From Lachnospiraceae bacterium (GTDB taxonomy: Bacteria > Bacillota > Clostridia > Lachnospirales > Lachnospiraceae), in NCBI GenBank assembly GCA_014804355.1, contig JAAUZY010000009.1, forward strand, positions 5,353 to 42,075: a stretch of 36,723 nucleotides of DNA, given 5' to 3'. Positions 1-19,844 of this stretch are shown piece after piece. Position 1 is the first letter of the stretch. Each line of letters opens with the position of its first letter. The position numbers and the translations under genes were made by a program. Below the pieces are notes generated by a model. It was not told where the DNA came from. It worked only from the letters and a program-made list of their open reading frames with translations, and did not search any database.

Positions 1-464
1 GTTCTGGCGATTGCCACCCTCTGCTGCTGCCCGCCGGAAAGAGCCGCCGGATATGCGCACATCCGCTCTCCTAAGCCCAGCAGATCAACGACCTCCTTCA
101 GATAATCCTCGTTTGGTGCAGAACCGTCCAACTCTAACGGGAATAAAATATTCTCCTTCACTGTCAGTGTCGGAACGAGATTATAATTCTGGAATATGAA
201 CCCCACCTTCTTACGCCTAAATACCGCAAGCTGCTCCTCCCGCAAACCGGCGAGACTCACACCGTCCACGATCACTTCTCCCTCCGTAGGCACGTCAAGA
301 CCGCCTATCATATTGAGCAGTGTAGTCTTGCCGCTGCCCGACGCACCTACTATGGCAACAAATTCGCCCCTTGCGACGGACAGATCGACCTCGTCCAATG
401 CCCGTACCTGATTCTCCCCGCTGCCATAATATTTCTTAAGCTTCCGTACTGTAACCATATCCAT
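1..464 (-). CDS. ABC transporter ATP-binding protein, BceA/MacB/LolD type (partial)
   Basis: The ATPase subunit of an ABC transporter; the C-terminal part lies beyond the left edge. Translation from 464 begins MDMVTVRKLKKYYGSG, followed by Walker A (GASGSGKTT), a Q-loop (GFIFQNYNLVP) and the signature LSGGQQQRVAIAR at the edge. The QNYNLVPTLTVKEN stretch is typical of the MacB/LolD/BceA group, which moves peptides or lipoproteins rather than importing sugars. The start overlaps the end of the upstream hybrid kinase gene by 29 bases; a second in-frame ATG lies at 458. The ribosome site is only a weak GGATAAAG. With the short-loop kinase and OmpR regulator upstream, a Bce-like antimicrobial-peptide sensing or resistance role is plausible. 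The permease would be expected left of the window. Family assignment is strong, substrate unknown. Confidence 0.9.
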   Translation of the reverse strand, partial: MDMVTVRKLKKYYGSGENQVRALDEVDLSVARGEFVAIVGASGSGKTTLLNMIGGLDVPTEGEVIVDGVSLAGLREEQLAVFRRKKVGFIFQNYNLVPTLTVKENILFPLELDGSAPNEDYLKEVVDLLGLGERMCAYPAALSGGQQQRVAIAR

Positions 465-3168
465 ATTGACTGTCTTTATCTTTATCCTTCTTTTTCACAA
501 ACATCAGACCAAACACACCCACACCGCAGTTACTTGACACTGTCGCAGAAGCCTTCTGGGTAATGATCCTGTCAAAATGCATATATTTCTCCACTTCTTC
601 CAGAATCTCTTCGATCTGGTGCACCGTACACCCGGCATAGGTGAGAAAGAGAACACTCGTATCAATCTGCTTGCTGTGCCGAAGCAGCTTCTTGACATAT
701 CTGTCGCGTACATGCTTCATATTGCCGCCCATCTCTATCTTCCAGAGTTTCAATTCGTTCTGGGACATGTGGAGCACCGGATGAAGATTCAGACCGCTGC
801 ATACCTTATGCACCGCAGCGCTGACCTTTCCATTGCGGTAAAGCGCTGCCGTACTCGGCACAAGGAAATTGGAACATACCCTGTCTCTGAACTGATCTAA
901 AGCCTTGCAGATCTCCTGGACGTCTTTCCCTTCTTCCGCCATAGATGCGGCGTACAATACCATAAGACCATGTCCGCTGCTGATATGGGTGGAATCCACT
1001 ATGGTAACATTACCAAAGCTTCTGCTCGCCTGCAGCGCATTCGGATAAGCCCCGCTTAAGTCAACGGTAGCCGTGATGTGGATCACATGCTCCGCACTTT
1101 CCAGCGTATCCGCAAAGAAATATTCATATTCCGAAGGCTCCGCCGTGGAAGAATGTGCATAATTCCCCTCTGTCTGCAAATAATTTAACAGGCTGTCGGA
1201 AGAGACCTCGAACAGGTCGCAGAAACGCCCTTCTTTCGTATGCACATAACAATACATCAGCCTGATCTGATATTTCTCCAGCAAATCTTTGGGCAGATCG
1301 CAGATGCAGTCGGCAGTGATCGCGATTTTCCGCTTCCTTACGCTGCTCACACGGTTGATGGTCGTCTCTCCTTCCATCTCGTCCTCGTCTGCCTGTGCAA
1401 CGTACTCGATCAGCTCCTGCGGCAGGTACTTTAACAGACTTGCCTCCAAAAGCGCCGAGTTAATGGGTTTCGCCAGATATCCGTCAAAGCCCATATTCTG
1501 ATAGACCTGTTCGGCATTCGTCATGACATTGGCAGTCAGGGCAACAATAGGCACCTTCTGACAGAACCCTTTCGTCTGGGCGCGCACCGCCTTCATCGTT
1601 TCCTCACCGTCCATATCCGGCATCATATGATCCATCAGAATCACATGGTACAGATTCTCGGCAGTCCGCTTCAGACATTCCTTGCCGCTCTCCGCTGTAT
1701 CAACTTTAATTCCCGTACCCCTGAGCAGTTTGATGGCTACCATACGGTTCATATCATTATCATCCACAACAAGCACTCTGGCATCAGGCGCCGTGAAGCT
1801 CTGTTTATATTTTGCACGGTTATTCAACTGTTTCTGCGATGCAAAGTTGATCACACCAATGGGTCGCACATTGACAATACGCTGTTTGACCTCCACCGTA
1901 AAAGTGGAGCCTTTGTGGTATACGCTGTCCACATAGATCCTGCCGCCCATCATTTCCATCAACTGTCTGGAAATATTGAGTCCCAGTCCGGTTCCTTCAA
2001 TATGGCGATTATCGCTTTCGTCCACGCGTTTGAAAGAACTAAACAGGTCGTCCAGACTCTCTTTACGGATTCCCATGCCGGTATCCGTCACGGAAATACG
2101 CAGCATGATCTGATCCGCCGCAATTCTTTCACCCTTAGCCGTCAATGTGACAGACCCTTCTGCCGTGTACTTGACTGCGTTAGTCAACATATTGGTGACT
2201 ACCTGCTTTATACGCACTTCATCACCATAGAGCATTGACGGAATCTCCGGATCAATGTCCACCTTAAACTCCAGCTCTTTCTCATGAGCACGAATCCAGA
2301 TCAGATTCACCAGATCGCTGAACATGGCGCTGATCTCATACTGTGCGGGTACGATCTCCATATTGCCCGACTCTATCTTGGACAGATCCAGAATATCATT
2401 GATGGTGGTCAGTAACATCTTGCTGGCATTCTGGATATTAATGGCATTCTCGGCAATCTCGTCGGAGATATCTTCCCTGAGGATCATCTCGTTCAAACCG
2501 ATGATCGTATTGATCGGCGTGCGGATCTCATGGCTCATATTGGCAAAAAAAGCATCTTTTGACCTGGCGATCCGTTCAATCTCCTCTTTCTGTTTCTCCG
2601 TCACTTCCTGCTCTTTATTATACGTCCACACCTGAATCTTCATCAGCATACCGACAAAACAGCTCACCACCAGCATCGTGATATAGGAATCAACGAAGCT
2701 GTAGGCGCGGCTTCCCCTAGGCACCATATTCGGATACTGATAGGCGATATAATATGTAATAAAAAAAGTAAGCACGGAAACCACCAGCGCAAAGATCATT
2801 TCTTTGCCGTCAAACAGCAGGAACACATAGACCAGCCCCAGCACAAACCAGACCGGCGTACCGCTCTCTATGCCCCCGCTCAAAATAAAGATCAACGGGA
2901 ACAAAATGAGATTGGATGCATAAACAAGCAGCTTGGCAGCCTTGTTGATCTTGCGCCGGTCCGCGGCTATATGAATTGCAACATAAGATACGATGCACAT
3001 CGGGATCAACGCATACAACACCACAGGAGCCGCTCCCAGCATAACACGTCCCATTCCGATGATAGCAGCGACAAATGCCAGCATCAGAGCGATTCGCATA
3101 AGCCTGTCCTGAAAATTCACCTGTTCATTCAACTGAGATCGTAAAAACCTGCGTATTCTCTTAATCAT
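436..3168 (-). CDS. Hybrid sensor histidine kinase with receiver and C-terminal DegV domain
   Basis: A 910-residue membrane hybrid kinase. About six hydrophobic segments (25-180) lead by a coiled stretch into a HisKA domain (FFANMSHEIRTPIN, phospho-His 213) and an HATPase domain (N-box around 327-335, DTGMGI 362-367, GTGLGL 392-397). A receiver follows (462-582; acidic pair D469/D470, acceptor D513 in LMDHMMPDMDG, K567). Where an HPt domain might be expected, residues 611-893 instead read as a complete DegV fold: DCICDLP, SSTAEPSEYEYFF, an LSGAY loop (704-708), VDST (724-727) and a terminal GVGVFGLMF. DegV/FakB proteins bind a fatty acyl chain. The canonical His of the terminal H-x-GPG motif appears replaced by N880. 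GGAGG precedes the ATG, which overlaps the upstream kinase stop by 8 bases. The frame is continuous, so the fusion is not caused by a frameshift here. Kinase assignment is very strong and DegV assignment strong; ligand and role are inference. Confidence 0.93.
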   Translation of the reverse strand: MIKRIRRFLRSQLNEQVNFQDRLMRIALMLAFVAAIIGMGRVMLGAAPVVLYALIPMCIVSYVAIHIAADRRKINKAAKLLVYASNLILFPLIFILSGGIESGTPVWFVLGLVYVFLLFDGKEMIFALVVSVLTFFITYYIAYQYPNMVPRGSRAYSFVDSYITMLVVSCFVGMLMKIQVWTYNKEQEVTEKQKEEIERIARSKDAFFANMSHEIRTPINTIIGLNEMILREDISDEIAENAINIQNASKMLLTTINDILDLSKIESGNMEIVPAQYEISAMFSDLVNLIWIRAHEKELEFKVDIDPEIPSMLYGDEVRIKQVVTNMLTNAVKYTAEGSVTLTAKGERIAADQIMLRISVTDTGMGIRKESLDDLFSSFKRVDESDNRHIEGTGLGLNISRQLMEMMGGRIYVDSVYHKGSTFTVEVKQRIVNVRPIGVINFASQKQLNNRAKYKQSFTAPDARVLVVDDNDMNRMVAIKLLRGTGIKVDTAESGKECLKRTAENLYHVILMDHMMPDMDGEETMKAVRAQTKGFCQKVPIVALTANVMTNAEQVYQNMGFDGYLAKPINSALLEASLLKYLPQELIEYVAQADEDEMEGETTINRVSSVRKRKIAITADCICDLPKDLLEKYQIRLMYCYVHTKEGRFCDLFEVSSDSLLNYLQTEGNYAHSSTAEPSEYEYFFADTLESAEHVIHITATVDLSGAYPNALQASRSFGNVTIVDSTHISSGHGLMVLYAASMAEEGKDVQEICKALDQFRDRVCSNFLVPSTAALYRNGKVSAAVHKVCSGLNLHPVLHMSQNELKLWKIEMGGNMKHVRDRYVKKLLRHSKQIDTSVLFLTYAGCTVHQIEEILEEVEKYMHFDRIITQKASATVSSNCGVGVFGLMFVKKKDKDKDSQYGYGYSTEA

Positions 3169-6100
3169 GATTGCCTCCGTTCTGACTTCCCGTTATCTTC
3201 TCCTTCAACTCCTCCAATACGCCGCCGGCGCCGAGGAAATCGAATTCGTCCACGCTCTGTCTGATTTTGGCCGTTATTTCATTCAGATTGATCCCGTGAT
3301 ATGTGCAGGATTCCAACTGCTTCAGAATATCCTCTATGCCATCGCTTTCGAAATTATCCAGCTGCTCCTGCAAAAGAGCTATCTGTCCGTTCAATGTCTG
3401 TTCATCTGTCTCCTGTAATACCTGCCCCGTATCGGTATTCCCTGTATCTCCATCCTCTCCTGCCTCCTCTCCGGATGCCTCCGATCCGGAATCAGGACAG
3501 CCGTCGGGATAAATAAAAGAATTCTCCGCAAGAGCTGCCAGAAGCTCTTCATGCTTCTTCATAAACTCTGCATGATGTTCCATAATATATTCGATTCGGT
3601 TTTCTTTGCCTGCCATCTCCATACTGAGGGCAAGTTCCGCCAGATCATTTGCTCCGATCCCTCTGGAATTACTCTTCAGGGCATGTGCGGTAATGGAATA
3701 ATTCTTCCAGTTCTGCTCCTCAAATAACTGCTGTAACTGTCGGCTTCTTCCCGCTCCCTGCGCATGATACATGGCGATGATCTCGCGCAGCCCTTCTCTA
3801 TCACCGCAGTAAGAAATGCCCTGCGAGATATTGATGCCCGCACGGCTGAGCGCCTCTAACCCTTCCGACTCGGATGAAGCGGCAGGTGTTTCCTCTGATT
3901 GATTAACTGCATCGGATCCTGCTGCCGTCCCGGGACTGTTCTGTTCCACAGCGCCCTCCTGCCCCGCCAAAGACTGTCCGCCGCCCCTGCTGCCGTTCTT
4001 ACCGGAGACATCTGCGTCCTCCTGCATCTGCGGATCTATCTTCACCTGCTTCTGCTGCGGGATATACCGCTGCAGCATTCTCTCTAACACGCTCAGTTCT
4101 ATGGGTTTGGCAATAAAATCATCGAATCCCTCTTCCATGAACATCTCTCTCGCCCCGCCGATGGCATTCGCCGTAAAAGCGATTATCGGAAGCGTCTGGA
4201 AATACGGCCCCGGCTTCTGGCGTATCCTGTGAAGCGTCTCCACACCATCCATCTCCGGCATCATGTGGTCTAAGAATACGCAGTCATAATCCATGCTATT
4301 TAATTTATCAAGCCCTTCCTGCCCGCCAAGCGCCATAACCACCTTGATCTGATAAGGAAGAAGAAGCCTTGCCATGACTTTCAGGTTCATGGCGTTGTCG
4401 TCTATTACAAGAACCTTCGCCGTAGGAGCCACAAATCGATAGCGGCTGTGCTGCTCATCGCTCTGCAGCACCTTCTCGCCATTTAGCACCGCCGCAATAG
4501 ACAGTACTGTAAAAGGCTTGTAAATACGAAGCATATTGCTTCCGCTCTGCATCTCCTGATCATAGTCGAGGATCAATACGACCTTGAGCTCCTGTGCCAT
4601 TTTCTCAAAAAATGCCTTATCCTCATTGTACTCTTCCCAGCCGATAAATATATGCGTGTAATTCTCATTCTCTATACGCCTCTTTAACTCCGAGAGATTC
4701 CTGCATACACGGAACATAACACCGAACTGTTCCGCCATATGACGCATGCATTTCTCATAGCCTTCCCGCACCACGGAGTAATCATATTTATCCATATTGA
4801 TATAGCTTGCAACAAAAATACGGCTCTTGTTCCTGATGGAGACAATGGGAGTTTCATCCAGCACCTTCTGCGGAATGGTGAACTGGAATTCCGTACCGTT
4901 TCCTGGCTCACTTTCCACTGTAATAAATCCGCCCATATTGCGCACCAATGCCTGCGTGATGGCAAGACCGAGTCCGATACCGCCCTCTTCCCGGTTCCTT
5001 CCGGAATTGACCTGACTGAAGCTGGCAAAAATATTCTCCATATCCTCCTGCTTCATGCCGATCCCGGAATCTTTGATACTGACTAACAGGTTAACGCCAT
5101 ACTCCTCTTTCCGGCTCTTAATCCGAAGGATCACGCCGCCTTCCTTCGTGAATTTAATGGCGTTTTCCATAAGATTCATGACAATGCGCCGGAACTTCTG
5201 TTCATCTCCCAGCAAGTTACTTGGCAGATTCGCATCACAGTCCACGATCAGTTCCAGTTGCTTGCCGTTCTCAAGCGTCAGCGCCATATTAATGATATCC
5301 GTAACCGTGGAGGTAATATTATAGCTCTCCTCCGCCAGCTCCATCTTACCGCTCTCTAATTCCGAGAAATCCAGAATATTGCTGACCGTAGCAAGAAGAT
5401 TACGTCCTGCAGTCTGAATATCTATGATATCCCGTCTCACATTCACGGGAATATCCTCATGCAGGATAGCCTCGCTCATGCCGCACACTGCATTGATGGG
5501 CGTCCGGATCTCATGGGAGATGTTCACCATAAAATCATCCTTGCTCTTCTCCACGATCTTCAATTCGCGGATTTTCTCTACCAACTGCTCATTAGTCTCC
5601 TGTCTGGTGCGTATCGTGATCCATGTGACGAACAGAATTGCGTATGCCGAAAGAATATGTAAGAAGAGCCTGAGAACCTCATTGGCTGTCTCTACTTTGA
5701 ACGTCCGCAGAATAAACACGTGATAGGCTATGATCACCGTAGCGCAGAACAGATCAATATAAATGATATCCGTAATACTGAAGATACCGAGCAGGACGAT
5801 CAGCGCAAGCATCGTGGACAACATCGAGGTAAAGCTCACTGACTGTGTTGCATAGATGGCAAAATTCACCCATGTCATGACCGCCAGAAATTTGGCGCGG
5901 TACTTATAGTCCCGGTATTTCCTGCTAAAAACGATCCATCCCGCCACAACAGTCGCTATAATGAGCTCCTTGAGCAGAATATGCCATGCTAACAGAAACG
6001 AGGAGACAAACATCGAAAGCGAAAAAATCGTGAAAAAAATCAATACGATCTGTTCCAGCTTCCTGCTCATTTTCTCATTCCCAAACTGTCTCTCTTCCAC
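3161..6100 (-). CDS. RpfC-like hybrid histidine kinase with pseudo-receiver, receiver and HPt
   Basis: A 979-residue phosphorelay kinase. Five to six N-terminal membrane segments (about 18-165) precede HisKA (MVNISHEIRTPIN, H196) and HATPase (ENAIKFT, DSGIGM, GIGLGL). Residues about 425-545 form a receiver-like domain without the acidic pocket, reading THIFIGWEEY where the acceptor Asp belongs but keeping YKPF. A normal receiver follows (562-682; D567/D568, acceptor D611, K665), then an Ala/Gly/Glu-rich linker and an HPt domain (about 760-858) with AHALKSNSRGIGA and phospho-H806. An acidic linker and a helical C-terminal tail end the protein. The start shown is GTG preceded by AAGGTAGG; an in-frame ATG at 6070 would drop ten residues. 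It overlaps the DegV-fusion kinase by 8 bases and follows the REC-HD-GYP gene by 60 bases, so its HPt could serve one or both neighbours. Confidence 0.93.
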   Translation of the reverse strand: MEERQFGNEKMSRKLEQIVLIFFTIFSLSMFVSSFLLAWHILLKELIIATVVAGWIVFSRKYRDYKYRAKFLAVMTWVNFAIYATQSVSFTSMLSTMLALIVLLGIFSITDIIYIDLFCATVIIAYHVFILRTFKVETANEVLRLFLHILSAYAILFVTWITIRTRQETNEQLVEKIRELKIVEKSKDDFMVNISHEIRTPINAVCGMSEAILHEDIPVNVRRDIIDIQTAGRNLLATVSNILDFSELESGKMELAEESYNITSTVTDIINMALTLENGKQLELIVDCDANLPSNLLGDEQKFRRIVMNLMENAIKFTKEGGVILRIKSRKEEYGVNLLVSIKDSGIGMKQEDMENIFASFSQVNSGRNREEGGIGLGLAITQALVRNMGGFITVESEPGNGTEFQFTIPQKVLDETPIVSIRNKSRIFVASYINMDKYDYSVVREGYEKCMRHMAEQFGVMFRVCRNLSELKRRIENENYTHIFIGWEEYNEDKAFFEKMAQELKVVLILDYDQEMQSGSNMLRIYKPFTVLSIAAVLNGEKVLQSDEQHSRYRFVAPTAKVLVIDDNAMNLKVMARLLLPYQIKVVMALGGQEGLDKLNSMDYDCVFLDHMMPEMDGVETLHRIRQKPGPYFQTLPIIAFTANAIGGAREMFMEEGFDDFIAKPIELSVLERMLQRYIPQQKQVKIDPQMQEDADVSGKNGSRGGGQSLAGQEGAVEQNSPGTAAGSDAVNQSEETPAASSESEGLEALSRAGINISQGISYCGDREGLREIIAMYHAQGAGRSRQLQQLFEEQNWKNYSITAHALKSNSRGIGANDLAELALSMEMAGKENRIEYIMEHHAEFMKKHEELLAALAENSFIYPDGCPDSGSEASGEEAGEDGDTGNTDTGQVLQETDEQTLNGQIALLQEQLDNFESDGIEDILKQLESCTYHGINLNEITAKIRQSVDEFDFLGAGGVLEELKEKITGSQNGGNHD

Positions 6101-6160: not shown

Positions 6161-7228
6161 TCAACTGATACCCAGCACTTCTTTTAACATCGGAAGCATT
6201 TCCATGAATACATCTATGATCACCGGATCAAACTGTGTTCCCCTGCCCTCCTGCATGATCTGCATGATCCGCTCAATGGGACGAACCGGCGGCTTATAAC
6301 ACCGCTCTTCATACAGCGCGTCGAAAACATCCGCCACAGCCATGATGCGTGCCGCCAGCGGTATCTCCTCCTCCTTAAGTCCCGTAGGATAACCCGTACC
6401 GTCCCACCTTTCATGATGGTACATGGCAATATCCTCCACGATCCCCACATAATGTTCGTCTTCCACATCACCGATGATCATCTTGATGATCGTGCTGCTG
6501 TGCGTGGTGTGCTGCTTCATCGTATCAAACTCTTCCGGAGTAAGCCTTCCGGGTTTCTGCAAGATCGCATCGGGAATCTTGATCTTCCCCACGTCATGTA
6601 ACGGCGCTGCTTTACACAGATCCTCTATGTATTCTTCCGTTAATTCCTGGGCGAAAAGATTCCTTCTTCGCAGTTCGTTGGCGATCATCCGCACATACAT
6701 CTGTGTATTTTTAACATGTTTTCCCGTGCTTCCGTCCCTGCTCTCAATCAGATTTGCCATGCCGACAATGACGGAATCCTGAATCTTACTGATACGTCTG
6801 GCATCTTCCGTGATCTTTTCCGCCTGCTCTTTTACCATGTTCTCCAGATTATGACGATACTGATCAAGTTCGATCGTCTTATCCACCCGGCTAAGAAGTA
6901 TATCCGGAACAAAAGGCTTGGTGACGAAGTCCATGGCGCCCATCTGAAAACATTTGATCTCCGTCTCCGCCAGATTATCCGCCGTCAGGAAAATGACCGG
7001 AATCGTCTTGGTTTCTTCCTGCGCACGGATCCGTTCCATCACCTCATACCCGTCCATGTCCGGCATATTGATATCCAGAAGGATCAGCTCCGGACGATGA
7101 TTTTCCAGATATTTCAAAGCGCCCCTGCCGGAATTGGAAGCGGCAATACGATACCTCGGCATAAGGATCTTCTGCGCCAGCGCCAGATTCGTCTTATCAT
7201 CATCCACAACCAAAATCGTATTTTTCAT
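6161..7228 (-). CDS. Response regulator with HD-GYP phosphodiesterase domain (RpfG-like)
   Basis: A 355-residue cytoplasmic regulator: an N-terminal receiver (1-120; D9/D10/D11, acceptor D52 in LLDINMPDMDG, K104), a coiled linker (120-150) and an HD-GYP domain (about 150-350). The HD-GYP domain keeps the metal and active-site features: HDVGKIKIP (H211, D212), H240, and HHERWDGTGYP (271-281). Family members hydrolyse cyclic di-GMP, so this gene is probably the output of the neighbouring kinases, as RpfG is for RpfC in xanthomonads. GGGAGAG lies before the ATG. It sits 51 bases after the short-loop kinase and 60 bases before the RpfC-like kinase, all on one strand. Domain calls are secure; the partner kinase is inferred from gene order only. 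Confidence 0.95.
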   Translation of the reverse strand: MKNTILVVDDDKTNLALAQKILMPRYRIAASNSGRGALKYLENHRPELILLDINMPDMDGYEVMERIRAQEETKTIPVIFLTADNLAETEIKCFQMGAMDFVTKPFVPDILLSRVDKTIELDQYRHNLENMVKEQAEKITEDARRISKIQDSVIVGMANLIESRDGSTGKHVKNTQMYVRMIANELRRRNLFAQELTEEYIEDLCKAAPLHDVGKIKIPDAILQKPGRLTPEEFDTMKQHTTHSSTIIKMIIGDVEDEHYVGIVEDIAMYHHERWDGTGYPTGLKEEEIPLAARIMAVADVFDALYEERCYKPPVRPIERIMQIMQEGRGTQFDPVIIDVFMEMLPMLKEVLGIS

Positions 7229-7279: not shown

Positions 7280-8338
7280 TTAGTTTAACAGATACACGGA
7301 AAAAGTGGTGCCTTTTCCGATCTCTGACTTCACACTGATATACCCCTTCTGTCTGGTGATGATTCCCTGTGCCAGATAAAGACCCAGACCGACTCCTTCC
7401 TGACCGGCACTCTCTTCTCCCCGGTAGAACCGCTTGAATACATCGTTATAGTGCTCTTCCGGTATGCCGATCCCGGTGTCGGTAATATCCACACGGGTAT
7501 AGAACTGCCACGGGCGGACTCTGATACGGATGCTTCCGCCATCCGGCGTATACTTGACTCCGTTGTCCAGAAGATTGCCCAGAGCCTCCGCCGTCCACTT
7601 GGGATCGTGTCTCACCTGAACGGATTCCTCACATTCCACCGTAAATCTGATATTCTTGTTCTCCGCCTTTGTAAGAACGCCGTTTAACGCCTGTGCGATC
7701 GTGTCATACAAGTTCGCCTCTTTAGCATGCAGCACAAACGTTCCCGTTTCCAATCGCGACATCTTAATAAGCGACTGCATGAGAAAATCCAGTTTACCAA
7801 TCTGACCCGCCATGGTCTCCAAAAATTCCGACCGTTTCTCCTCACTCAGCCGATGTTCCCGCAGAATGCCTATAAACATTGAAAGATTGGCGATAGGCGT
7901 CTTAACCTGATGTGAGATGTCGCTCACCAGTTCCTGTATCGTCTGTTTGTCCTGCAGGCTGCGCCTCCATCCTTCATTCATCAGATCGTAATATTGCAGT
8001 AGTTTACCCTGCACCCTTGCTGTCAGGGTATCCTCATAAGGATAATAGTTCTCCGGCTCCCGTCCGGCCATAAGCTCATCCAGCGTCCGGCACAGCTCTT
8101 CTGCAAAACGGCATACCTGCCGCCGCTGCCACAGACACCATATAAACGCGGTCAGACACGTCCCTCCGCACAAAAACAATAATGCATACCGCACCGAGGC
8201 ACGTGGAACCCACATCCACAAAACATACAGAAATCCTGCAAACAACGCCGACCCCATGGCAATCATCACCGTCGTGACCACGTGATTACCCACTGTGCTG
8301 CTCTCTATATGTTTTCTCTGTGCCTGTTCCATTCTCAC
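7280..8338 (-). CDS. Sensor histidine kinase with two close TM helices (intramembrane-sensing type)
   Basis: A 352-residue kinase. Two membrane helices (about 20-42 and 51-70) are separated by only some eight residues, so there is almost no extracellular sensor. This architecture is typical of BceS-like kinases that read the state of a partner ABC transporter. A linker leads to HisKA with SDISHQVKTPIANLSMF (H143) and an HATPase domain (LGNLLDNGVKYT, DITDTGIGIPEEH, GVGLGLYLA). Its ATG overlaps the response regulator stop (ATGA), so the two are translationally coupled. In typical Bce-type operons the ABC genes follow directly; here three other signalling genes intervene before an ABC ATPase. 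The kinase call is certain, the Bce-like role is inference. Confidence 0.94.
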   Translation of the reverse strand: MRMEQAQRKHIESSTVGNHVVTTVMIAMGSALFAGFLYVLWMWVPRASVRYALLFLCGGTCLTAFIWCLWQRRQVCRFAEELCRTLDELMAGREPENYYPYEDTLTARVQGKLLQYYDLMNEGWRRSLQDKQTIQELVSDISHQVKTPIANLSMFIGILREHRLSEEKRSEFLETMAGQIGKLDFLMQSLIKMSRLETGTFVLHAKEANLYDTIAQALNGVLTKAENKNIRFTVECEESVQVRHDPKWTAEALGNLLDNGVKYTPDGGSIRIRVRPWQFYTRVDITDTGIGIPEEHYNDVFKRFYRGEESAGQEGVGLGLYLAQGIITRQKGYISVKSEIGKGTTFSVYLLN

Positions 8339-9033
8339 ATCCCCTGTTTCTTCTGCCAGACATATCCCATCCCGCGCACAGTCTTGATGTAGGCATGTTC
8401 CTCATCCTCGATCTTGGCGCGGAGCCTGTTCATAGTCACCGTCAGCGTATGGTCGTCTATAAAATTACCGTCACAGTCCCACAACCGCGTAAGTAAGCTC
8501 TGTCTCGTGACGACATTCCCTGCATTGGCTGTCAGAATCTTTAATAATTTATATTCATTCGGTGTGATCGCCAGTTTCTCGCCTCCGCGGACCGCGGTAA
8601 GCGCAGTAAAATCCACCTGTAAGAAATCATCCCGATAACATTCCCCGACGGCTGACGGTTCCGCCAAAGCGCTGCCCCGGCGAATCGCAACCTCAACCCG
8701 TCTCAAGAGTATTTTCATATTAAAAGGTTTCGTAATGTAATCTTCCGCGCCCAGATCAAATCCATTCAGCACGTCTTCCTCCAAATCATTGGCCGTAAGG
8801 AAGATCACGGGAAGCTGCGGATTACGGCTCTTAATCTCCCGGCACAGTTCAAAACCGCTGCCGTCAGGCAGATTCACATCCAAAAGCATAAGCGCATATT
8901 CTTCCTGTTCCGCCAAATATCTGGCCTTGCGGCAGTTGTAGGCCGCCTGCGACACATAACCCACCGCATCCAGTTCAAAGCACAGGCCTGTGCTGAGGGC
9001 AAGATCGTCTTCCACGACTAAAATCCGTTCCAT
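8335..9033 (-). CDS. OmpR/PhoB-family response regulator
   Basis: A 232-residue DNA-binding regulator. The receiver (1-120) has D9/D10, acceptor D52 in LLDVNLPDGSG, the switch threonine in FLTAND and K102 in YITKPFNM. A winged-helix domain (about 130-230) follows, with ITPNEYKLLKIL, the recognition region DDHTLTVTMNRLRAKIE and a VRGMGYVW wing. AAGGAGA lies a few bases before the ATG. It is first in a long minus-strand gene run and is followed with a 4-base overlap by its cognate kinase. A candidate promoter (9153-9181) and an array of 10-base direct repeats just upstream could serve its own regulation, since this family binds direct repeats. Confidence 0.95.
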   Translation of the reverse strand: MERILVVEDDLALSTGLCFELDAVGYVSQAAYNCRKARYLAEQEEYALMLLDVNLPDGSGFELCREIKSRNPQLPVIFLTANDLEEDVLNGFDLGAEDYITKPFNMKILLRRVEVAIRRGSALAEPSAVGECYRDDFLQVDFTALTAVRGGEKLAITPNEYKLLKILTANAGNVVTRQSLLTRLWDCDGNFIDDHTLTVTMNRLRAKIEDEEHAYIKTVRGMGYVWQKKQGM

Positions 9034-9375: not shown

Positions 9376-11016
9376 CTATATCCCCGGCATGTAGTAGAAA
9401 CAGGTCTTCTCCGGAACCGCAAGAAATCTTTTTCCCAGTGGGTGCTCCTCTATGCGGTAGTCACTGGCGGCCGCAATCACGATCCTGCCATCGTAAAGTG
9501 CGCAGTACCTTGTCCCTTCCCAATCGCAGGGCGCCTCATAGACAGGCAGGACATTCACAGCCTTTTCGTCTCCCATATTATAAGTAAAGATGCCGTTATA
9601 TCCCCAGAACACGAAATCCGACTCCGCGCCCGGCGCAATGATGTCGATCATAATCGTATTCTCCGGCATGATATCATAATAGATTTCGTCCAGTGTCCCT
9701 TCCTTCGCATTAAGAGACGCAATTCCCATTCTTCTTTCCGGATTCTCGGAATCATAGTAATTCTCAATACACGTATAAACTTTACCGTCCTTGCCGACAC
9801 CCAGACCGCCGTTCAGATTCAGGGCATACTCATCGGGCGCAATGCGCGAAATATAATTTCCCTCCCGATCCAACACGAGAATCTCACATTCCTGCGCTTC
9901 CTTCGGCGACTTAAGTCCCGCCACACTAAGATAGAGATAACCGTCTGCACCGATCGTCATTCGTCTTGCGTAACCTATTCTCTCCCGTGCCATATAAGGA
10001 GACATGTCGATCTTACGAAGCAGTTCTCCATCCTTATTCACTACCCATACCGCAAGTTCTCTGCTCTCCCAATCATTCTCATCCGGCCACTGCCACAACG
10101 CCATATAAACATCCCCGTTCACATCCTGACACATCGCAAGGATTCTCGTCTCCACACCGAAATCATCGAAGAAAAATTCAGAATCACTGCTGCCGATCTC
10201 CATTCGGTGTACGGTGTTATATCCTGCCAGGAACAGTTCATTCCGCCCTGCCGCTATCGTCAGATCCAGTTCCAGATCTCCCGTGTAAGGAATGGTCAGC
10301 TCCTGCGTCGGTTCATAGACTGCATCTCCTTCAAGGATCGATATGTCGGTTGCCTCAATCTCTTCTTCCTCGATCTCGGGCAGCTGTGCCTCTCCCGCCG
10401 CGATCATCTCATTCATTTTCTGCAGGCTGTAATCCCTCTTGTGCATGAAATCGATAATCTGCAGCAGTTCTTCGTCGCTCATCTCCCCCTCCGGGAAGAA
10501 AAAGGTCGTTGTGTCGCCTAAAAGAGCAACCCCTTTGCCCTTATACTTCTCCGCTTCCTCTATCATGGTGAGCTCACCCTTCGGGAAACGCGCCTCGTCC
10601 TCATAGGCTTCCCGCAGCTGACTCATCCGCTCTTTTTCGGTATCGGTATATGGCCTGTTATAATTGTCAACTCCGATCTTTGAAGCATATATCTGTGTGA
10701 AATACTCTTCCATCTTCTCACGGTTCATGGCTTCCATCCGCTCTCTGAGCGCACCCACCGAAGCGACCGCCGTCGCGGAGATCAGCATGATCATCGCCGC
10801 TGCGAGGATTATGCTTTTCTTAAAATTCATACGAAACCGTTTTTCTTTAGGTTTACATAATATTTCTTCTATTCTGTCGGTCATACTCTGCGGCATGACC
10901 ATCTGCTCTTGTTCTGCCATATGAAAAATTGACTCTTCCCATCTGTCTTGCATAGTTCTCTCCTCTCTGCATGCTGCAAACAGCACATTCGCGTAATATT
11001 TTTCATCCTGTTTCAC
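9376..11016 (-). CDS. Putative membrane anti-sigma factor with extracytoplasmic propeller-like domain
   Basis: A 546-residue single-pass protein. A cytoplasmic N-terminus of about 65 residues, with a MTDRIEEILCKPKEKRF segment, precedes one membrane helix (about 66-90, IILAAAMIMLISATAVASVGAL-like). The large outer part first has a charged helical and acidic stretch (about 90-235), then repeated blade-like segments such as DVNGDVYMALWQW, GADGYLYLSV and GKDGKVYTCIENYY, typical of a beta-propeller. The gene starts 14 bases after the ECF sigma gene, so it is most likely the partner anti-sigma factor or a sensor bound to it. No zinc-binding anti-sigma (HxxxCxxC) motif is seen. The function is inferred from position and topology; no specific family is recognised. 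Confidence 0.7.
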   Translation of the reverse strand: MKQDEKYYANVLFAACREERTMQDRWEESIFHMAEQEQMVMPQSMTDRIEEILCKPKEKRFRMNFKKSIILAAAMIMLISATAVASVGALRERMEAMNREKMEEYFTQIYASKIGVDNYNRPYTDTEKERMSQLREAYEDEARFPKGELTMIEEAEKYKGKGVALLGDTTTFFFPEGEMSDEELLQIIDFMHKRDYSLQKMNEMIAAGEAQLPEIEEEEIEATDISILEGDAVYEPTQELTIPYTGDLELDLTIAAGRNELFLAGYNTVHRMEIGSSDSEFFFDDFGVETRILAMCQDVNGDVYMALWQWPDENDWESRELAVWVVNKDGELLRKIDMSPYMARERIGYARRMTIGADGYLYLSVAGLKSPKEAQECEILVLDREGNYISRIAPDEYALNLNGGLGVGKDGKVYTCIENYYDSENPERRMGIASLNAKEGTLDEIYYDIMPENTIMIDIIAPGAESDFVFWGYNGIFTYNMGDEKAVNVLPVYEAPCDWEGTRYCALYDGRIVIAAASDYRIEEHPLGKRFLAVPEKTCFYYMPGI

Positions 11017-11030
11017 AGTGCTTTTCCTGT

Positions 11031-11501
11031 CTACTCCTCCAGCATCTCCTTCAGTGCCTTTTTCGCTCTGAACAGTCTGGATTTTACGGTTCCCTCCGGC
11101 ACATGAAGAATCCTGCCGATCTCCTTAATTGAAAATCGCTCGTAGAAATACAGCATGATCACTTCCCTGTGCGCCGTCTCAAGCTGCATAACCACATCCC
11201 ATAATTCATGGTTCTCATCTTTGAATGACGGCATATATGCCTCCATGTCTTCCATCGGCGTGATCCGTTTATTTTTTCCGTATATCCTTCTGGCTTCGTT
11301 CGCCACGATCTGCATGATCCACGGCTTAAATCGGTTCCGGTCCCGAAGTGTATGCCTCTTCTCGTAGGCCATAAGCACCGCTTCACTGACCGCGTCCTCC
11401 GCATCCTGCCTGTTATGCAGCATGGCAAGCGCCAGTCGGTACATGTTCGGCGCATATTCCCGTATATTCCGTTCAAATGTCTCTTGTTCCATGCCGGACA
11501 C
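11031..11501 (-). CDS. ECF-type RNA polymerase sigma factor
   Basis: A 156-residue group 4 sigma factor. Region 2 (about 8-75) contains MYRLALAMLHNRQDAEDAVSEAVLMAYE and FKPWIMQIVANEARRIY; region 4 (about 100-155) has LETAHREVIMLYFYERFSIKEIGRILHVPEGTVKSRLFRAKKAL in sequence, a helix-turn-helix for -35 recognition. The start shown is GTG, four bases after GGAGG; an ATG three codons later (11492) is the alternative and has a longer spacing. It directly precedes the putative anti-sigma gene. A TTGACA hexamer (11585-11590, minus strand) and a perfect AACGATCGTT palindrome (11574-11583) lie upstream and may be part of its control region. Confidence 0.93.
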   Translation of the reverse strand: MSGMEQETFERNIREYAPNMYRLALAMLHNRQDAEDAVSEAVLMAYEKRHTLRDRNRFKPWIMQIVANEARRIYGKNKRITPMEDMEAYMPSFKDENHELWDVVMQLETAHREVIMLYFYERFSIKEIGRILHVPEGTVKSRLFRAKKALKEMLEE

Positions 11502-11687: not shown

Positions 11688-13718
11688 TCACGCCTCGGCG
11701 TTTATGACTTTCAAGAACACCTGCACCAGCTGCGGATCAAACTGCGTACCGGAACACCGAAGCAGCTCTTCCACTGCCCTATCATGGCTCATCGCCTTGT
11801 GATAAGGTCTGTCGTGCACCATGACATCATGGGAATCCACCACCGTAATGATACGGGACAACAGCGGGATCTCCTCCCCTTTCAGTCCGCCCGGATAACC
11901 CTTGCCGTCCCATCTTTCATGATGGTGTAATATGTACTCCGCAATAGGCTGCAGTTCCTTGGAGGCACTGGCGATCCGGTATCCCTTCTCCGTGTGGCTC
12001 TTCATGACCTCCCACTCTTCGTCTGTCAGCTTGTCCGGCTTAAGCAGTATTGCATGCGGAATCGCGATCTTACCGATGTCATGCAGTACCGCCAGCAGAG
12101 CCAGCCGCCCCAGATCGGTGTCAGACAGGTTGATCGCCTTGCCAAGTTTTACGGCCATCTCTTTCGTGCGTTCCACATGCTCCTCCGTCTCATAGTCGCT
12201 CTCCGTCAGCGTCTGTGTCAACGAATCCAACAGGGAACTCTTCTGGGATGTCTCATTCATCAGCTTCTTCGTATGCATACTGTCGGAGGCTTCTTTCAGT
12301 GCTTCCTCCACACTCTTGCTGTCATCCCTGATCACCGCAATACCGTACTCCAGATCCGTGTTGATTCCGGTATCATTGCTTTCACGGTACTGTTCCCTGA
12401 TATTTTCAAAAAGGCGAATCGCATACTCCTGCTCGACCTCGGCAAGTCCGGCCGCCATATCCCCGTCCTCCAACCGTGCAAGCACGGCGGTATTCGGCAG
12501 GTTATCCCGCAGCAGATCCGCCGCTCTTCTGAGCATCTCATTGCCTTTTGTCCACCCGAACACGTCATTTACAAGTCCGATCCCGTTGGTATTGCAGACC
12601 ACTACCGTAATCGGATAGATACTTTTCTCAATTATGCGTTTCATCCTGGTATGGAAACTCTGCTTGGAATACAGCTGCGTCAGCATATCCCGCTCCACTT
12701 CCAGATTTTTCATAATAAGCAGATGTCCGATGTTTCTGCCTTTCTCGTCCTGAAGGCAGGTGAAATTGCACTGATACACCTTCGCACCGCCCTCATCGGA
12801 GTTTCTCCACTCAAACACCTGATCCGTCACCGTGCTCTGCAGTTCTTTGAAAGAAGCGATCTGCATGAAATCCATCATGCTGATCCTCCTATTCTGCTGA
12901 TTTAATATAGGAAAAAGTTCCCGCATGTCACGGTTCGTATCCGCCACATATCCCTCGTAATCGAACAGCACCATCGGCGTTCCCATATATTCCAGAACCA
13001 TCTTTCGGGTAGAATTCAGCATTCCCTTAGACGTATAATCAAATATATTACCGTATATGACCGGCGTGACCAAACCGTAAAACAACACCGAAAGGTCTAT
13101 GCCCACCTTGAGCAACCCCGAGATATATCCGCTGCTGAACAGAATCACAATTACAAGCCCGGTCAGCATATACCTATATCTCCCACTGTAGATCTTAGGC
13201 ACCGTATATACTTTTACAATAAGGACATACACAATGGCCGCCCCCATGAAGAACGTAAACCCAAAATGGAGATAAAATAGCGGTTTGGGCACATACATAA
13301 ACTTGATCGCATATATACTGTACAAATTGTACTGATAACGCAGCACGATCTCATGGGAGATGTTGACGATAAGCAGCGCCGCATCAACCAGCGCGATCCC
13401 GACATGCAGCAGATAAATATATTTTCTGCGTTTGGGTGCCAGTATCTTATAATTCGTAAACTCCACGACAAACTGAAATGTCGTAACTACCAACAGATCC
13501 ATACATATGAAATATATGCTGGTGCACAAAGATGCCATGAAATACGATTTTACAATGATTCTCGCGATGTATGCTATATTCAGCATACCTGCCGCCAGAA
13601 ACGCATTTCCCGTAAACACACCCAGACGGCTTTTCTTCCCATAACTTTTGAAAGCATAGATAATCGCGCATAGAGCGGCAAGCCCATGCAATACATAGAA
13701 CCAGACATTATCCCCCAT
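11688..13718 (-). CDS. 7TM sensor with PAS, degenerate GGDEF and HD-GYP domains
   Basis: A membrane cyclic-di-GMP-type signalling protein of 676 residues from the preferred start. Seven hydrophobic segments fill the first 225 residues. A PAS-like region (about 245-335, starting MGTPMVLFDYEGYVADTN) and a GGDEF-like domain (about 340-495, with DMLTQLYSKQSF) follow; its active motif reads LEDGDM instead of GGDEF, so cyclase activity is unlikely. The C-terminal HD-GYP domain (about 510-675) is intact: VLHDIGKIAIPH and HHHERWDGKGYPGGL. AGGGG lies seven bases before the ATG at 13718; an earlier in-frame ATG at 13733 lacks this and would overlap the ribosome site. The degenerate GGDEF may act as a nucleotide-binding regulatory domain controlling the phosphodiesterase; this is inference. 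Confidence 0.93.
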   Translation of the reverse strand: MGDNVWFYVLHGLAALCAIIYAFKSYGKKSRLGVFTGNAFLAAGMLNIAYIARIIVKSYFMASLCTSIYFICMDLLVVTTFQFVVEFTNYKILAPKRRKYIYLLHVGIALVDAALLIVNISHEIVLRYQYNLYSIYAIKFMYVPKPLFYLHFGFTFFMGAAIVYVLIVKVYTVPKIYSGRYRYMLTGLVIVILFSSGYISGLLKVGIDLSVLFYGLVTPVIYGNIFDYTSKGMLNSTRKMVLEYMGTPMVLFDYEGYVADTNRDMRELFPILNQQNRRISMMDFMQIASFKELQSTVTDQVFEWRNSDEGGAKVYQCNFTCLQDEKGRNIGHLLIMKNLEVERDMLTQLYSKQSFHTRMKRIIEKSIYPITVVVCNTNGIGLVNDVFGWTKGNEMLRRAADLLRDNLPNTAVLARLEDGDMAAGLAEVEQEYAIRLFENIREQYRESNDTGINTDLEYGIAVIRDDSKSVEEALKEASDSMHTKKLMNETSQKSSLLDSLTQTLTESDYETEEHVERTKEMAVKLGKAINLSDTDLGRLALLAVLHDIGKIAIPHAILLKPDKLTDEEWEVMKSHTEKGYRIASASKELQPIAEYILHHHERWDGKGYPGGLKGEEIPLLSRIITVVDSHDVMVHDRPYHKAMSHDRAVEELLRCSGTQFDPQLVQVFLKVINAEA

Positions 13719-13787
13719 CTTATGTCCCCTCATTATCCATCAGTTCAGACACTGATACTTTATTCTTAGCATTCTGCCGGCATACTC

Positions 13788-15555: not shown

Positions 15556-16614
15556 TCATTCCGCAAAATCCACATGCACATTCCCCATAGAGCACTCGAT
15601 CTGATAGGTACTGCTGCTCCCATTGGAAATACTCACTTCATCCGTCAATCCCGTATAGCTGCGGCTTCCCACACGCACATTTCCCATAGAGCACTCAATT
15701 TCATAATTGTGATCTTCCTCTGCATCGTCCAGGCTCAATTGCACATCACCCATACTGCATTTGATGTCCATATTCCCGCTGAACAGTCCGGTCAGTTCCG
15801 CCTTGCCCATGCCAAGCTCAAGGTCTGTCTCCCGCGCCACCTGTGCGCCGTCAATATGCAGTTCTCCCGCACCCACATCCAGATCCAGCTCGCCTGCACT
15901 TAGTGCATCCAATGTAACCCGTCCCGCGCCGACCGACATTCCTATGCTGTCCGCCGCCGTAAGGCCGTCGATGCTGCATGCACCTGCACCCACCTCAATA
16001 TCCATTTCACGCGCCTGCAGACCGACCGAATCCATGCTGCCGGCTCCTATTTCGATGTCCATGTATTCCGGATTAGTCCCCTTCGGCAGGTAAAGATATA
16101 CCTTAGCCTCCGTCTTAACCGTAATTCCATTCCCCGACCAGTTCCAGACGCCACGACCCGTTCTGTGTACCATCTTCAGGGTATCTCCGTTCTCCACGAT
16201 GTAGCGGAAATTTTTCGTATTCCCGGTCATACTGATTCCGACATGATCTCCCGTCGCTTCCATAATGTGCAGTTCGCACGCGCCCAGCTCCATGTAAAGT
16301 GAGCGAAGAGTATCTGCCGTCAATTCCAGTTCTACTTCCCCGTCGTTTTTACTGATACGGTTCCACTTCTCATATTTCGACCAGTTAAAGTCATCGTCCC
16401 AATCATCGTCCCAGCCGAACCCAAACCGCAGACCGCCGCCGCCTGTACGGGTATAATGAAAAGGAATCCCCGTTATGCCCATAACATCCACGTCTCTCAA
16501 CACCCTGAAACCGCCGAATAGCGCGGCTATACCACAGATCAGACATCCGATGATAAAAGTAACCAGCGCCGTCATCAGACACCCTTTTGTAAACTTACTC
16601 ATTCCTGTTTTCAT
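15556..16614 (-). CDS. DUF4097 beta-helix-type envelope protein
   Basis: A 352-residue protein: an N-terminal membrane helix (about 13-35, LMTALVTFIIGCLICGIAALFGG) followed by an acidic Trp/Asp-rich segment and a C-terminal half of repeated short beta strands. The repeats are clearly visible as alternating MDIEIGAGSMD, MDIEVGAGACSID, IGMSVGAGRVTLD, LDLDVGAGELHID, TDLELGMGKAEL, MDIKCSMGDVQL and YEIECSMGNVRV. This matches the DUF4097 adhesin-like family. Its ATG overlaps the DUF1700 stop (ATGA), and GGAGG precedes it. It probably belongs to an envelope-stress module with PspC; the molecular role is unknown. Confidence 0.9.
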   Translation of the reverse strand: MKTGMSKFTKGCLMTALVTFIIGCLICGIAALFGGFRVLRDVDVMGITGIPFHYTRTGGGGLRFGFGWDDDWDDDFNWSKYEKWNRISKNDGEVELELTADTLRSLYMELGACELHIMEATGDHVGISMTGNTKNFRYIVENGDTLKMVHRTGRGVWNWSGNGITVKTEAKVYLYLPKGTNPEYMDIEIGAGSMDSVGLQAREMDIEVGAGACSIDGLTAADSIGMSVGAGRVTLDALSAGELDLDVGAGELHIDGAQVARETDLELGMGKAELTGLFSGNMDIKCSMGDVQLSLDDAEEDHNYEIECSMGNVRVGSRSYTGLTDEVSISNGSSSTYQIECSMGNVHVDFAE

Positions 16615-17510
16615 GCCCGTGCACCTCCTCTGTTAAAAAGTCTCCGGCATAGAGAGACGATTCCTCTGATAAACGCCGGTATTGCCGTTCCGGCCATCAG
16701 CACCATCAACCACACAAACACAAGTCCGATGGCAAACAAAATAAACGCCGTTCCTACTAAACTAATTCCGCCCAAAGGTACGGAGAACAACAGTACGATG
16801 CCCGTAATCAGGAGTGCAATCGCAACTATGATTAATCCGATACCCGCAACTAAAAACGCAATGAACACTGCGAACAGTGTTGCCAGAAGTCCGACCGCCA
16901 CTCCGAAGAGTCCTCCCAGCAGTCCGATCCAGATCGGAGAAGTGAGCACTGCCAGAATCGCGATCAGCGCGATCGTCCCGCCCGACATATCCTGCTTCGG
17001 CTGCGTATACTGACCACCCGAAGGGTTTCCTGTGGAATCACCGGCATTCGTCTGCTCATAAGGGTTACTGTGTTTCCTCGTATCCTCTCTGCCTCCGTAG
17101 AAGCTGTCCGCCCCGCTTCGTTGATAATAGCCGCCCTGATAATAAGCATTATCCGCCTGTGCGGTATTACCGCCTGCCTGCTTGAATGTCTCCGCTCCAT
17201 TTCCTGCTGTATCAGCTCTTCCGTTTTGTCCTACATCCTCTGTCCGAATCAGCTCATCCCGCGATGCCTGCGTATATCCGCTGAAACCGGACTCCGTGAA
17301 CTCGCCGGTGTTCCCGCCGTCACTCAATCCCGCTTTGATCGTTCTCGCCAGCTCCTCCGGCGTACCTAACGACGCGATGACACCGCTCTCATTCTCTGCT
17401 CCGGCATCGTCGAAATAATCATTATAATATTGGATGGCTTCATCCCGCTCCGTCGGTGATACATCGCCAAGAAGCTCTGTCAGACGCCTCATAAACTCTG
17501 CTCTATTCAT
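16611..17510 (-). CDS. DUF1700-domain membrane protein
   Basis: A 299-residue protein. The N-terminus (1-65) is a DUF1700 domain: MNRAEFMRRLTELL, DEAIQYYNDYFDDAG and LGTPEELARTIKAGL. A Gly/Asn/Tyr/Gln-rich low-complexity linker (about 66-170) is followed by several very hydrophobic segments (about 175-285). DUF1700 genes regularly follow PadR regulators and precede DUF4097 genes, as here. The ATG overlaps the PadR stop by 8 bases, so translation is coupled. Probably part of an envelope-sensing or repair module; the exact function is unknown. Confidence 0.9.
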   Translation of the reverse strand: MNRAEFMRRLTELLGDVSPTERDEAIQYYNDYFDDAGAENESGVIASLGTPEELARTIKAGLSDGGNTGEFTESGFSGYTQASRDELIRTEDVGQNGRADTAGNGAETFKQAGGNTAQADNAYYQGGYYQRSGADSFYGGREDTRKHSNPYEQTNAGDSTGNPSGGQYTQPKQDMSGGTIALIAILAVLTSPIWIGLLGGLFGVAVGLLATLFAVFIAFLVAGIGLIIVAIALLITGIVLLFSVPLGGISLVGTAFILFAIGLVFVWLMVLMAGTAIPAFIRGIVSLCRRLFNRGGARA

Positions 17511-17829
17511 GCTTCAATCCTCCCTCAAAGATACTGTTTAACTTGGCGGAATACCGATACCACTCGCTGATATACAGATTAAGCTGTGCCCTTCCCTTCT
17601 CTGTCACCTTATAGTATCGTCTGTTCCTGCCCGCACATTCCATATCGTAGACTTCCAGACATTCATCCTTCTGCAGTCTCCTGAGCACGGGATATAACGT
17701 GGATTCCGAAATCTCAATGACCTGCCGCACTTCCTGCGTGATCTTATAGCCGTATGTCCCTTCCGGTTCACTGGACACCACCGCCAGCACGATCGCATCA
17801 AGCAGTGCCGCACCTGTGTTAAAAACCAT
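17503..17829 (-). CDS. PadR-family transcriptional regulator
   Basis: A winged-helix repressor of 108 residues from the ATG at 17829, preceded by AAAGGAG at an 8-base spacing; an in-frame ATG at 17865 adds twelve residues but lacks a comparable ribosome site. The sequence LLDAIVLAVVSSEPEGTYGYKITQEV, ISESTLYPVLRRLQKDECLEVYD and GRNRRYYKVTEKGRAQL is typical of PadR. It is first in the operon with DUF1700, DUF4097 and PspC and probably represses that operon. The striking periodic AT-rich array upstream (17892-18004) is a natural candidate binding region. Confidence 0.93.
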   Translation of the reverse strand: MVFNTGAALLDAIVLAVVSSEPEGTYGYKITQEVRQVIEISESTLYPVLRRLQKDECLEVYDMECAGRNRRYYKVTEKGRAQLNLYISEWYRYSAKLNSIFEGGLKHE

Positions 17830-17891
17830 GCGATAAACTCCTTTCCTGCTTTTTACATACCTCATAACGAATCATCCTCGCATTATGCATC

Positions 17892-19829: not shown

Positions 19830-19844
19830 AGCTGTGTCCTTTCT

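What the first reader, a model, noticed from the sequence alone, without database searches (positions are those of the whole stretch)
436..3168. Histidine kinase-receiver protein fused in frame to a complete DegV (fatty-acid-binding) domain
Seen: HisKA, HATPase and receiver domains are followed in one uninterrupted frame by about 280 residues with DegV hallmarks (DCICDLP, SSTAEPSEYEYFF, LSGAY, VDST, GVGVFGL). Known: DegV/FakB proteins hold an acyl chain and normally exist as single-domain partners of fatty acid kinase. Inference: the domain may let the kinase sense a fatty acid or membrane-lipid state, or use the signalling state to control acyl delivery. I know of no described kinase of this architecture.
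Basis: partly seen in the sequence, partly recalled or inferred. Interest (0 to 1): 0.85.

Follow-up and report, generated by a model that had tools for sequence, protein, structure and literature searches.

The report
Fat-binding domain on gut-bacterium kinases
Some Lachnospiraceae bacteria encode paired signalling kinases, one of them fused to a domain from a fatty-acid-carrier family that lacks the residues its relatives use to hand fat to lipid synthesis, so it likely senses a lipid and would steer the cell's signalling instead.

Summary
It is not a one-off: 517 long proteins match the DegV part, and 47 of 299 family genomes carry close relatives. The gene is half of a conserved cassette. 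In 99 of 123 non-redundant loci the next gene upstream is a second hybrid kinase with Hpt; in the window the two overlap by 8 bp. In 7 loci the Hpt sits on the DegV protein and the partner lacks it. Catalytic residues checked are intact in 96 of 96 pairs, bar one receiver Thr. Family-draw neighbours include receiver-linked c-di-GMP enzymes (26 of 58) and chemosensory genes (7 of 58).

The DegV domain is predicted to have the FakB fold. These domains form one clade, mostly keep carboxylate-contacting hydroxyls, but lost FakB's Arg205 and His270. Best reading: a FakB retired from acyl delivery and recruited as the likely lipid sensor of a two-kinase phosphorelay. Ligand, sensing and phosphotransfer are untested. 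Our literature searches found no description.

The parts
436..3168 (-). HK-REC-DegV hybrid kinase, 910 aa (P0001)
2629..3168 (-). N-terminal membrane region (residues 1-180), predicted; helices about 19-42, 48-68, 71-96, 104-118, 121-144 and 154 onward, no large outside domain
   Evidence: hydropathy, 5 segments; secondary structure of a low-confidence whole model
2365..2559 (-). HisKA (residues 204-268), phospho-acceptor His213
1882..2226 (-). HATPase_c (residues 315-429)
1441..1776 (-). Receiver domain (residues 465-576), phospho-acceptor Asp513
490..1329 (-). DegV/FakB-family domain (residues 614-893)
   Evidence: Pfam PF02645 E 1e-44; predicted fold pLDDT 92.8, Foldseek prob 1.00 to FakB structures
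3161..6100 (-). Partner hybrid kinase HK-REC-Hpt, 979 aa; overlaps the DegV gene by 8 bp; Hpt domain at about 3587-3781
   Evidence: same neighbour in 99 of 123 loci
6161..7228 (-). Response regulator REC-HD-GYP (predicted c-di-GMP phosphodiesterase), likely output
   Evidence: a receiver-linked HD-GYP and/or GGDEF gene stands in the same-strand run in 26 of 58 family-draw loci, the window's included
7280..9033 (-). Separate OmpR-type regulator and histidine kinase on the same strand; a REC-wHTH regulator is seen in only 3 other of 123 loci, so probably not part of the cassette
3..464 (-). ABC transporter ATPase whose start overlaps the end of the HK-REC-DegV gene (continues outside the window, L007 5136-5816); its conservation as a neighbour was not tested, and in the nearest relative L039 the next gene is on the other strand

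Best explanation
This is a hybrid histidine kinase, predicted to sit in the membrane, with a DegV domain that likely acts as its lipid sensor and that, with the adjacent HK-REC-Hpt kinase, would feed one phosphorelay to a neighbouring response regulator. SHOWN from sequence: the fusion, the partner kinase, intact catalytic residues in both, the Hpt found on one protein of the pair or on a nearby gene, the adjacent receiver-linked c-di-GMP or chemosensory genes, and the loss of residues that FakB1 uses for FakA docking and catalysis. PREDICTED: the DegV fold and the membrane helices. INFERRED: (1) the DegV domain binds a fatty acid or similar amphiphile taken from the membrane; (2) it does not hand this to FakA; (3) ligand occupancy shifts the kinase/phosphatase balance of the DegV kinase or of a complex with its partner; (4) phosphate moves His to Asp within either kinase, then to the shared Hpt, then to the output receiver; (5) in this window the output is the REC-HD-GYP protein, so a lipid signal would change c-di-GMP.
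Against: No ligand, kinase activity or phosphotransfer has been measured. The DegV domain usually sits after the receiver, where output domains usually sit. Loss of His270 and relaxation of Arg173 could mean that the pocket no longer binds a fatty-acid carboxylate; S95 is Gly in 15 of 124, and the window has Cys at FakB's Ser9. How FakB docks on FakA is disputed (PMC11617999, passages), which weakens the argument from Arg205. The full-length model is poor (pLDDT 69.1, pTM 0.41), so coupling geometry is unknown. One locus (L046, a 5-kb contig) has a lone receiver, not the partner kinase, directly upstream. In 23 of 123 loci (10 of 58 family-draw) no receiver-linked output was seen in the same-strand run, partly from short contigs.
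Confidence: 0.55

Rival explanations
1. The DegV domain senses, but its ligand is not a fatty acid: the re-tuned carboxylate end (Asn-Cys-Gly, His796, Cys623) binds another amphiphile such as a bile acid or lipid precursor, or a metal or redox cofactor.
For: H270 to Asn (119 of 124), Cys after it (105 of 124), Lys to His (113 of 124), Cys623 (106 of 124; 10 of 40 stand-alone); Cys621, Cys623 and Cys881 are invariant in the 121 closest proteins.
Against: The hydroxyls at T62 and S95 are mostly kept (113 and 100 of 124) and the predicted fold matches fatty-acid-bound proteins. The Cys and His are not invariant family-wide. No coordinates were at hand, so spatial clustering was not tested.
Confidence: 0.25
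2. The DegV domain is an output: receiver phosphorylation opens or closes it so that the cell stores or releases fatty acids, regulating acyl supply.
For: Position C-terminal to an intact receiver; FakB proteins carry acyl chains (PMC8892158, passages); a stand-alone FakB4 limits lipid content in S. pyogenes (PMC10138225, abstract); the own genome has a FakA-like gene and five other DegVs.
Against: FakA-binding Arg205 is lost and Arg173 relaxed; the module also occurs N-terminal to a kinase and as a separate protein beside HK-REC-Hpt; receiver-linked c-di-GMP or chemosensory genes often supply outputs.
Confidence: 0.12
3. The DegV domain is a ligand-free structural or dimerisation module.
For: Conserved changes at the ligand-contact site; no ligand shown.
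Against: Pocket-side motifs stay conserved across divergent relatives (window Ser730 56 of 59, Pro797 57 of 59, Asn880 54 of 59, Gly882 59 of 59); FakB proteins are reported unstable without fatty acid (PMC8892158, passage).
Confidence: 0.08

Closest known systems
FakB / DegV fatty-acid-binding proteins (PF02645; S. aureus FakB1, FakB2)
   Same: Complete domain, predicted same fold, most carboxylate-contacting hydroxyls kept
   Different: Fused or linked to kinases; FakA-binding Arg205 and His270 lost, Arg173 relaxed; own clade
Hybrid histidine kinases with Hpt phosphorelays (BarA, TorS, ArcB types)
   Same: HisKA, HATPase, receiver and (partner) Hpt with intact catalytic residues
   Different: Two hybrid kinases in tandem with usually one Hpt between them; the second carries DegV; scores far below the equivalog cut-offs of TorS, BarA and ArcB
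DhaQ and related DhaK-like co-activators (function recalled; fold match)
   Different: DhaQ works with a transcription factor and dihydroxyacetone (recalled), not with a phosphorelay
Stand-alone haem sensors encoded beside hybrid kinases (H-NOX, NosP; recalled)
   Same: A ligand-binding protein partnered with a kinase
   Different: Different fold and ligand (recalled)

Membership tests
FakB fatty acid kinase subunit | DegV (PF02645) domain and fold | tested here: met
FakB fatty acid kinase subunit | Hydroxyls that hold the fatty-acid carboxylate (T62, S95) | tested here: met
   Window S705 and S673 or T675, depending on the alignment; family S95 100 of 124, T62 Ser/Thr 113 of 124
FakB fatty acid kinase subunit | His270 of the carboxylate network | tested here: not met
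   Window N880; Asn in 119 of 124
FakB fatty acid kinase subunit | Arg173 (catalysis, latch), 'completely conserved' in PMC8892158 | tested here: not met
   Window K781 (121 of 121 in the closest set); Arg in 55 of 124 family-wide
FakB fatty acid kinase subunit | Arg205 (FakA binding, membrane contact) | tested here: not met
   Window M813 or G815 depending on the alignment; Arg in 2 of 124; 11 of 124 have an Arg within a few columns
FakB fatty acid kinase subunit | Bound fatty acid and transfer to FakA | not testable with these tools
   Needs biochemistry
Hybrid histidine kinase | HisKA His, ATPase N and G1 boxes, receiver Asp/Thr/Lys | tested here: met
   96 of 96 for all but one Thr
Multistep phosphorelay | Hpt domain and downstream receiver output encoded together | tested here: met
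   Hpt in partner, Hpt His 96 of 96; REC-HD-GYP adjacent in the window
Multistep phosphorelay | Phosphotransfer between the two proteins | not testable with these tools
   Inferred from the Hpt complementarity

The most novel reading that the evidence does not exclude
Lachnospiraceae turned a fatty-acid carrier into a cytoplasmic lipid sensor: DegV-gated tandem hybrid kinases report membrane or dietary fatty acids through a shared Hpt to c-di-GMP enzymes and chemosensory arrays, an undescribed route from lipid state to lifestyle switching.
Probability: 0.4. Interest if true: 0.88.

Novelty: new variant of a known kind. Interest (0 to 1): 0.76.

Why it matters
How these anaerobes sense free fatty acids and membrane lipid state is, to my knowledge, largely open. 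This gives a widespread, operon-encoded candidate with a defined binding fold, a clear split from the metabolic FakBs, and measurable outputs (c-di-GMP, chemosensory signalling). Named strains carry it: Acetatifactor muris DSM 23669, Schaedlerella arabinosiphila DSM 106076, Sporofaciens musculi WCA-9-b2 and Mediterraneibacter agrestimuris DSM 111629. It also shows that a DegV-family annotation does not imply fatty acid kinase function.

Tried and rejected
Artefact or frameshift fusion: rejected, since the architecture recurs in many genomes. Acyl delivery to FakA: disfavoured by residue loss. Metal or haem site from the conserved Cys and His: kept only as a rival, because I had no model coordinates to measure distances (no coordinate file among the session files listed) and the residues vary family-wide. 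Tandem duplication of the two kinases: the kinase-core tree was inconclusive; many rows labelled 'other' were partners or near-copies of partners. Full-length structure: low confidence, so no domain-packing claim. Wider survey: 15 of 391 class-wide genomes matched at E 1e-38; outside the family, long frames (908-917 aa) in 3 genomes of one other family. Domain-only searches for stand-alone relatives (49 proteins, all listed; 36: 198 proteins, 120 listed) returned many pieces of fused proteins (several still carry a receiver); some records of about 290 aa at 69-76% identity to the L061 domain (P0197, P0201, P0227) may be real separate DegVs and were not followed up.

Literature: (listings) turned up no description of a DegV-kinase fusion. 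Of the six papers I opened two (PMC12688256, PMC3146951; passages) and its one paper (PMC9912610; passages); their DegV mentions are unrelated. The other listed papers were not opened.

Rows dropped and biases: five of 128 loci (three ordinary DegVs near the hit, two pieces of one contig) before the 123-locus counts; one DegV fragment. The 124 linked rows hold the window twice (P0001 and L007). Its 40 controls are 34 frames from 33 loci of 13 family genomes (only matches that had been given loci), 3 solved proteins and the 3 ordinary DegVs. The tree used 62 of the 124 linked rows. Loci beyond the 58 family-draw loci come from a scan seeded with one sub-clade (A2), so 123-locus percentages lean to it; family draw alone: 40 of 58 with HK-REC-Hpt upstream, 11 with HK-REC, 7 not evaluable or other. 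Domain labels come from local models seeded with window proteins, checked with Pfam only for the 18 relatives' proteins. In one search the own-genome control rows on minus-strand loci were read in the wrong direction; the controls were redone and only those are used. The G2-box index read a neighbouring Leu, so the G2 box is not cited.

Full report

DISTRIBUTION. Searching with the DegV part while allowing only long proteins gave 517 hits; the 120 listed all carry HATPase, receiver and DegV domains. A scan of named genomes found 378 stretches encoding a relative, the best 80 kept, among them Acetatifactor muris, Schaedlerella arabinosiphila, Sporofaciens musculi, Mediterraneibacter agrestimuris and Oscillibacter records, most others titled Lachnospiraceae. 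Class-wide, 15 of 391 genomes match at E 1e-38; three genomes of another family have 908-917 aa frames. Where databases name such proteins, they call them 'DegV family EDD domain-containing protein': known sequence, not interpreted.

THE CASSETTE. In the window the gene overlaps by 8 bp a second hybrid kinase, 3161-6100, with HisKA, HATPase, receiver and Hpt, preceded by a REC-HD-GYP response regulator at 6161-7228. I read 57 further neighbourhoods from family genomes and 80 from named genomes. Reduced at 95% identity of the DegV domain they give, with the window, 128 loci, 123 after dropping ordinary DegVs and fragments. Directly upstream of the DegV gene stands HK-REC-Hpt in 99, HK-REC in 11, no evaluable gene in 8, and something else in 5 (mostly split or truncated partners; L046 is a real or contig-limited exception). 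For the 96 HK-REC-DegV pairs the gap is 30 bp or less, overlaps included, in 71. Seven DegV proteins with a visible partner carry the Hpt themselves, and all seven partners lack it. Of 103 DegV proteins without Hpt, 99 partners have it, and in the other four (L040, L070, L079, L080) an Hpt lies on another gene close by. In the tree the DegV-Hpt forms fall in about three places (L094; L075, whose place is unresolved; six together), so relocation probably happened more than once; the p-value does not correct for relatedness. Within the 96 pairs the residues checked are intact: His, N-box Asn, G1 Asp, receiver acidic pocket, phospho-Asp and Lys in both kinases, receiver Thr 95 and 96 of 96, Hpt His 96 of 96. 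That the two kinases feed one relay through a shared Hpt is inference.

OUTPUTS. In the 58 family-draw loci (window included) the same-strand run holds a receiver linked to HD-GYP and/or GGDEF in 26, CheW with MCP in 7, and none of the sought outputs in 10; in the L058 example Pfam confirms CheA, CheW and MCP. Over all 123 loci a lone receiver is the only class in 59 (inflated by the seeded scan) and nothing was seen in 23. In the window the HD-GYP protein keeps the HD and GYP motifs in the printed sequence (motifs recalled).

THE POCKET. PMC8892158 (passages) describes in S. aureus FakB1 a network of Thr62, Ser95, Ser171 and His270 with the fatty-acid carboxylate; Arg173 is needed for catalysis and proposed as a latch; Arg205 is the key FakA-binding residue; it calls both Arg completely conserved. 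PMC11617999 (passages) says that models of FakA-FakB docking conflict. Comparing 124 linked rows (window twice) with 40 stand-alone DegV/FakB sequences: Ser95 is Ser in 100 of 124 against 39 of 40; Thr62 Ser/Thr in 113 of 124 against 40 of 40; His270 is Asn in 119 of 124 against His in 37 of 40; Arg173 is Arg in 55 of 124 against 40 of 40; Arg205 is Arg in 2 of 124 against 38 of 40; the Lys before the conserved Pro is His in 113 of 124 against Lys in 31 of 40; Cys follows the Asn in 105 of 124. Ser9 is Ser in 100 of 124 but Cys in the window. In the less biased family-draw rows the trend is the same: Asn 53 of 58, His for Lys 47 of 58, Ser95 35 of 58, Thr62 Ser/Thr 47 of 58, Arg173 29 of 58. 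In the 121 closest proteins K781, N880, C881 and S705 are invariant. The alignment around Thr62 and Arg205 shifts by one or two columns between runs; 11 of 124 rows have an Arg within a few columns of the Arg205 site.

EVOLUTION. A maximum-likelihood tree of 102 rows (62 linked, 40 stand-alone) puts the linked domains on one side of a 100/100 branch. The nearest stand-alone relatives (L186, L204) keep Ser, Thr, Ser, Arg173, Arg205 and His270 and have no kinase, receiver or Hpt gene found within about 7-10 kb by the local models. The three stand-alone DegVs beside HK-REC-Hpt (L091-L093) branch first in the linked clade under the drawn (midpoint) rooting and already show Asn and no Arg205. So the residue changes coincide with recruitment to the kinase, before fusion. 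The module then appears C-terminal (usual), N-terminal (L070), split (L040, possibly a frameshift) or fused to Hpt alone (L094). Such mobility suits a regulatory sensor better than a dedicated output.

MECHANISM. I commit to a lipid sensor that gates a two-kinase phosphorelay. Shown: parts, linkage, intact catalytic residues, loss of FakA-docking residues. Predicted: fold and membrane anchor. Inferred: ligand, coupling, phosphate route and effect on c-di-GMP. The own genome also has a FakA-like gene and five other DegVs, so metabolic FakB work is likely covered by others.

KNOWN OR NEW. The parts are known kinds; the combination was not found described in the held library (most subscription papers are not held). 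I class it as a new variant of a known kind.

Noticed in passing
L058, L043, L047, L060, L062, L063, L064 (upstream of HK-REC-Hpt): A chemosensory set (MCP, CheW, in L058 also CheA by Pfam, usually a lone receiver) stands directly before the two kinases, suggesting that the relay and a chemoreceptor array are wired together.
   Followed up: partly
window 11688-13733 (-): 7TM-GGDEF-HD-GYP protein whose GGDEF signature looks degenerate (reads EDGDM) while the HD-GYP part looks intact.
   Followed up: no
window 9376-11016 (-): 546-aa protein with no Pfam or NCBIfam match directly after an ECF-type sigma factor (11031-11501); possibly its anti-sigma factor.
   Followed up: no
window 15556-17865 (-): PadR regulator, HAAS protein and Toastrack (DUF4097) protein in a row.
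   Followed up: no
window 18612-22350 (-): HydF and two radical-SAM genes, consistent with [FeFe]-hydrogenase maturation.
   Followed up: no
L007 85-5816 and window 7280-9033: Two ABC ATPase/permease pairs and an OmpR-type two-component pair flank the cassette on the same strand, resembling an antimicrobial-peptide response module (recalled). A REC-wHTH regulator is seen beside only 3 other of 123 loci; the ABC genes were not sought in the relatives, and parts of L007 read N.
   Followed up: partly
L186, L204: Stand-alone DegVs that keep the FakB residues but already have Cys after His270: the nearest unlinked relatives of the kinase-linked clade.
   Followed up: yes
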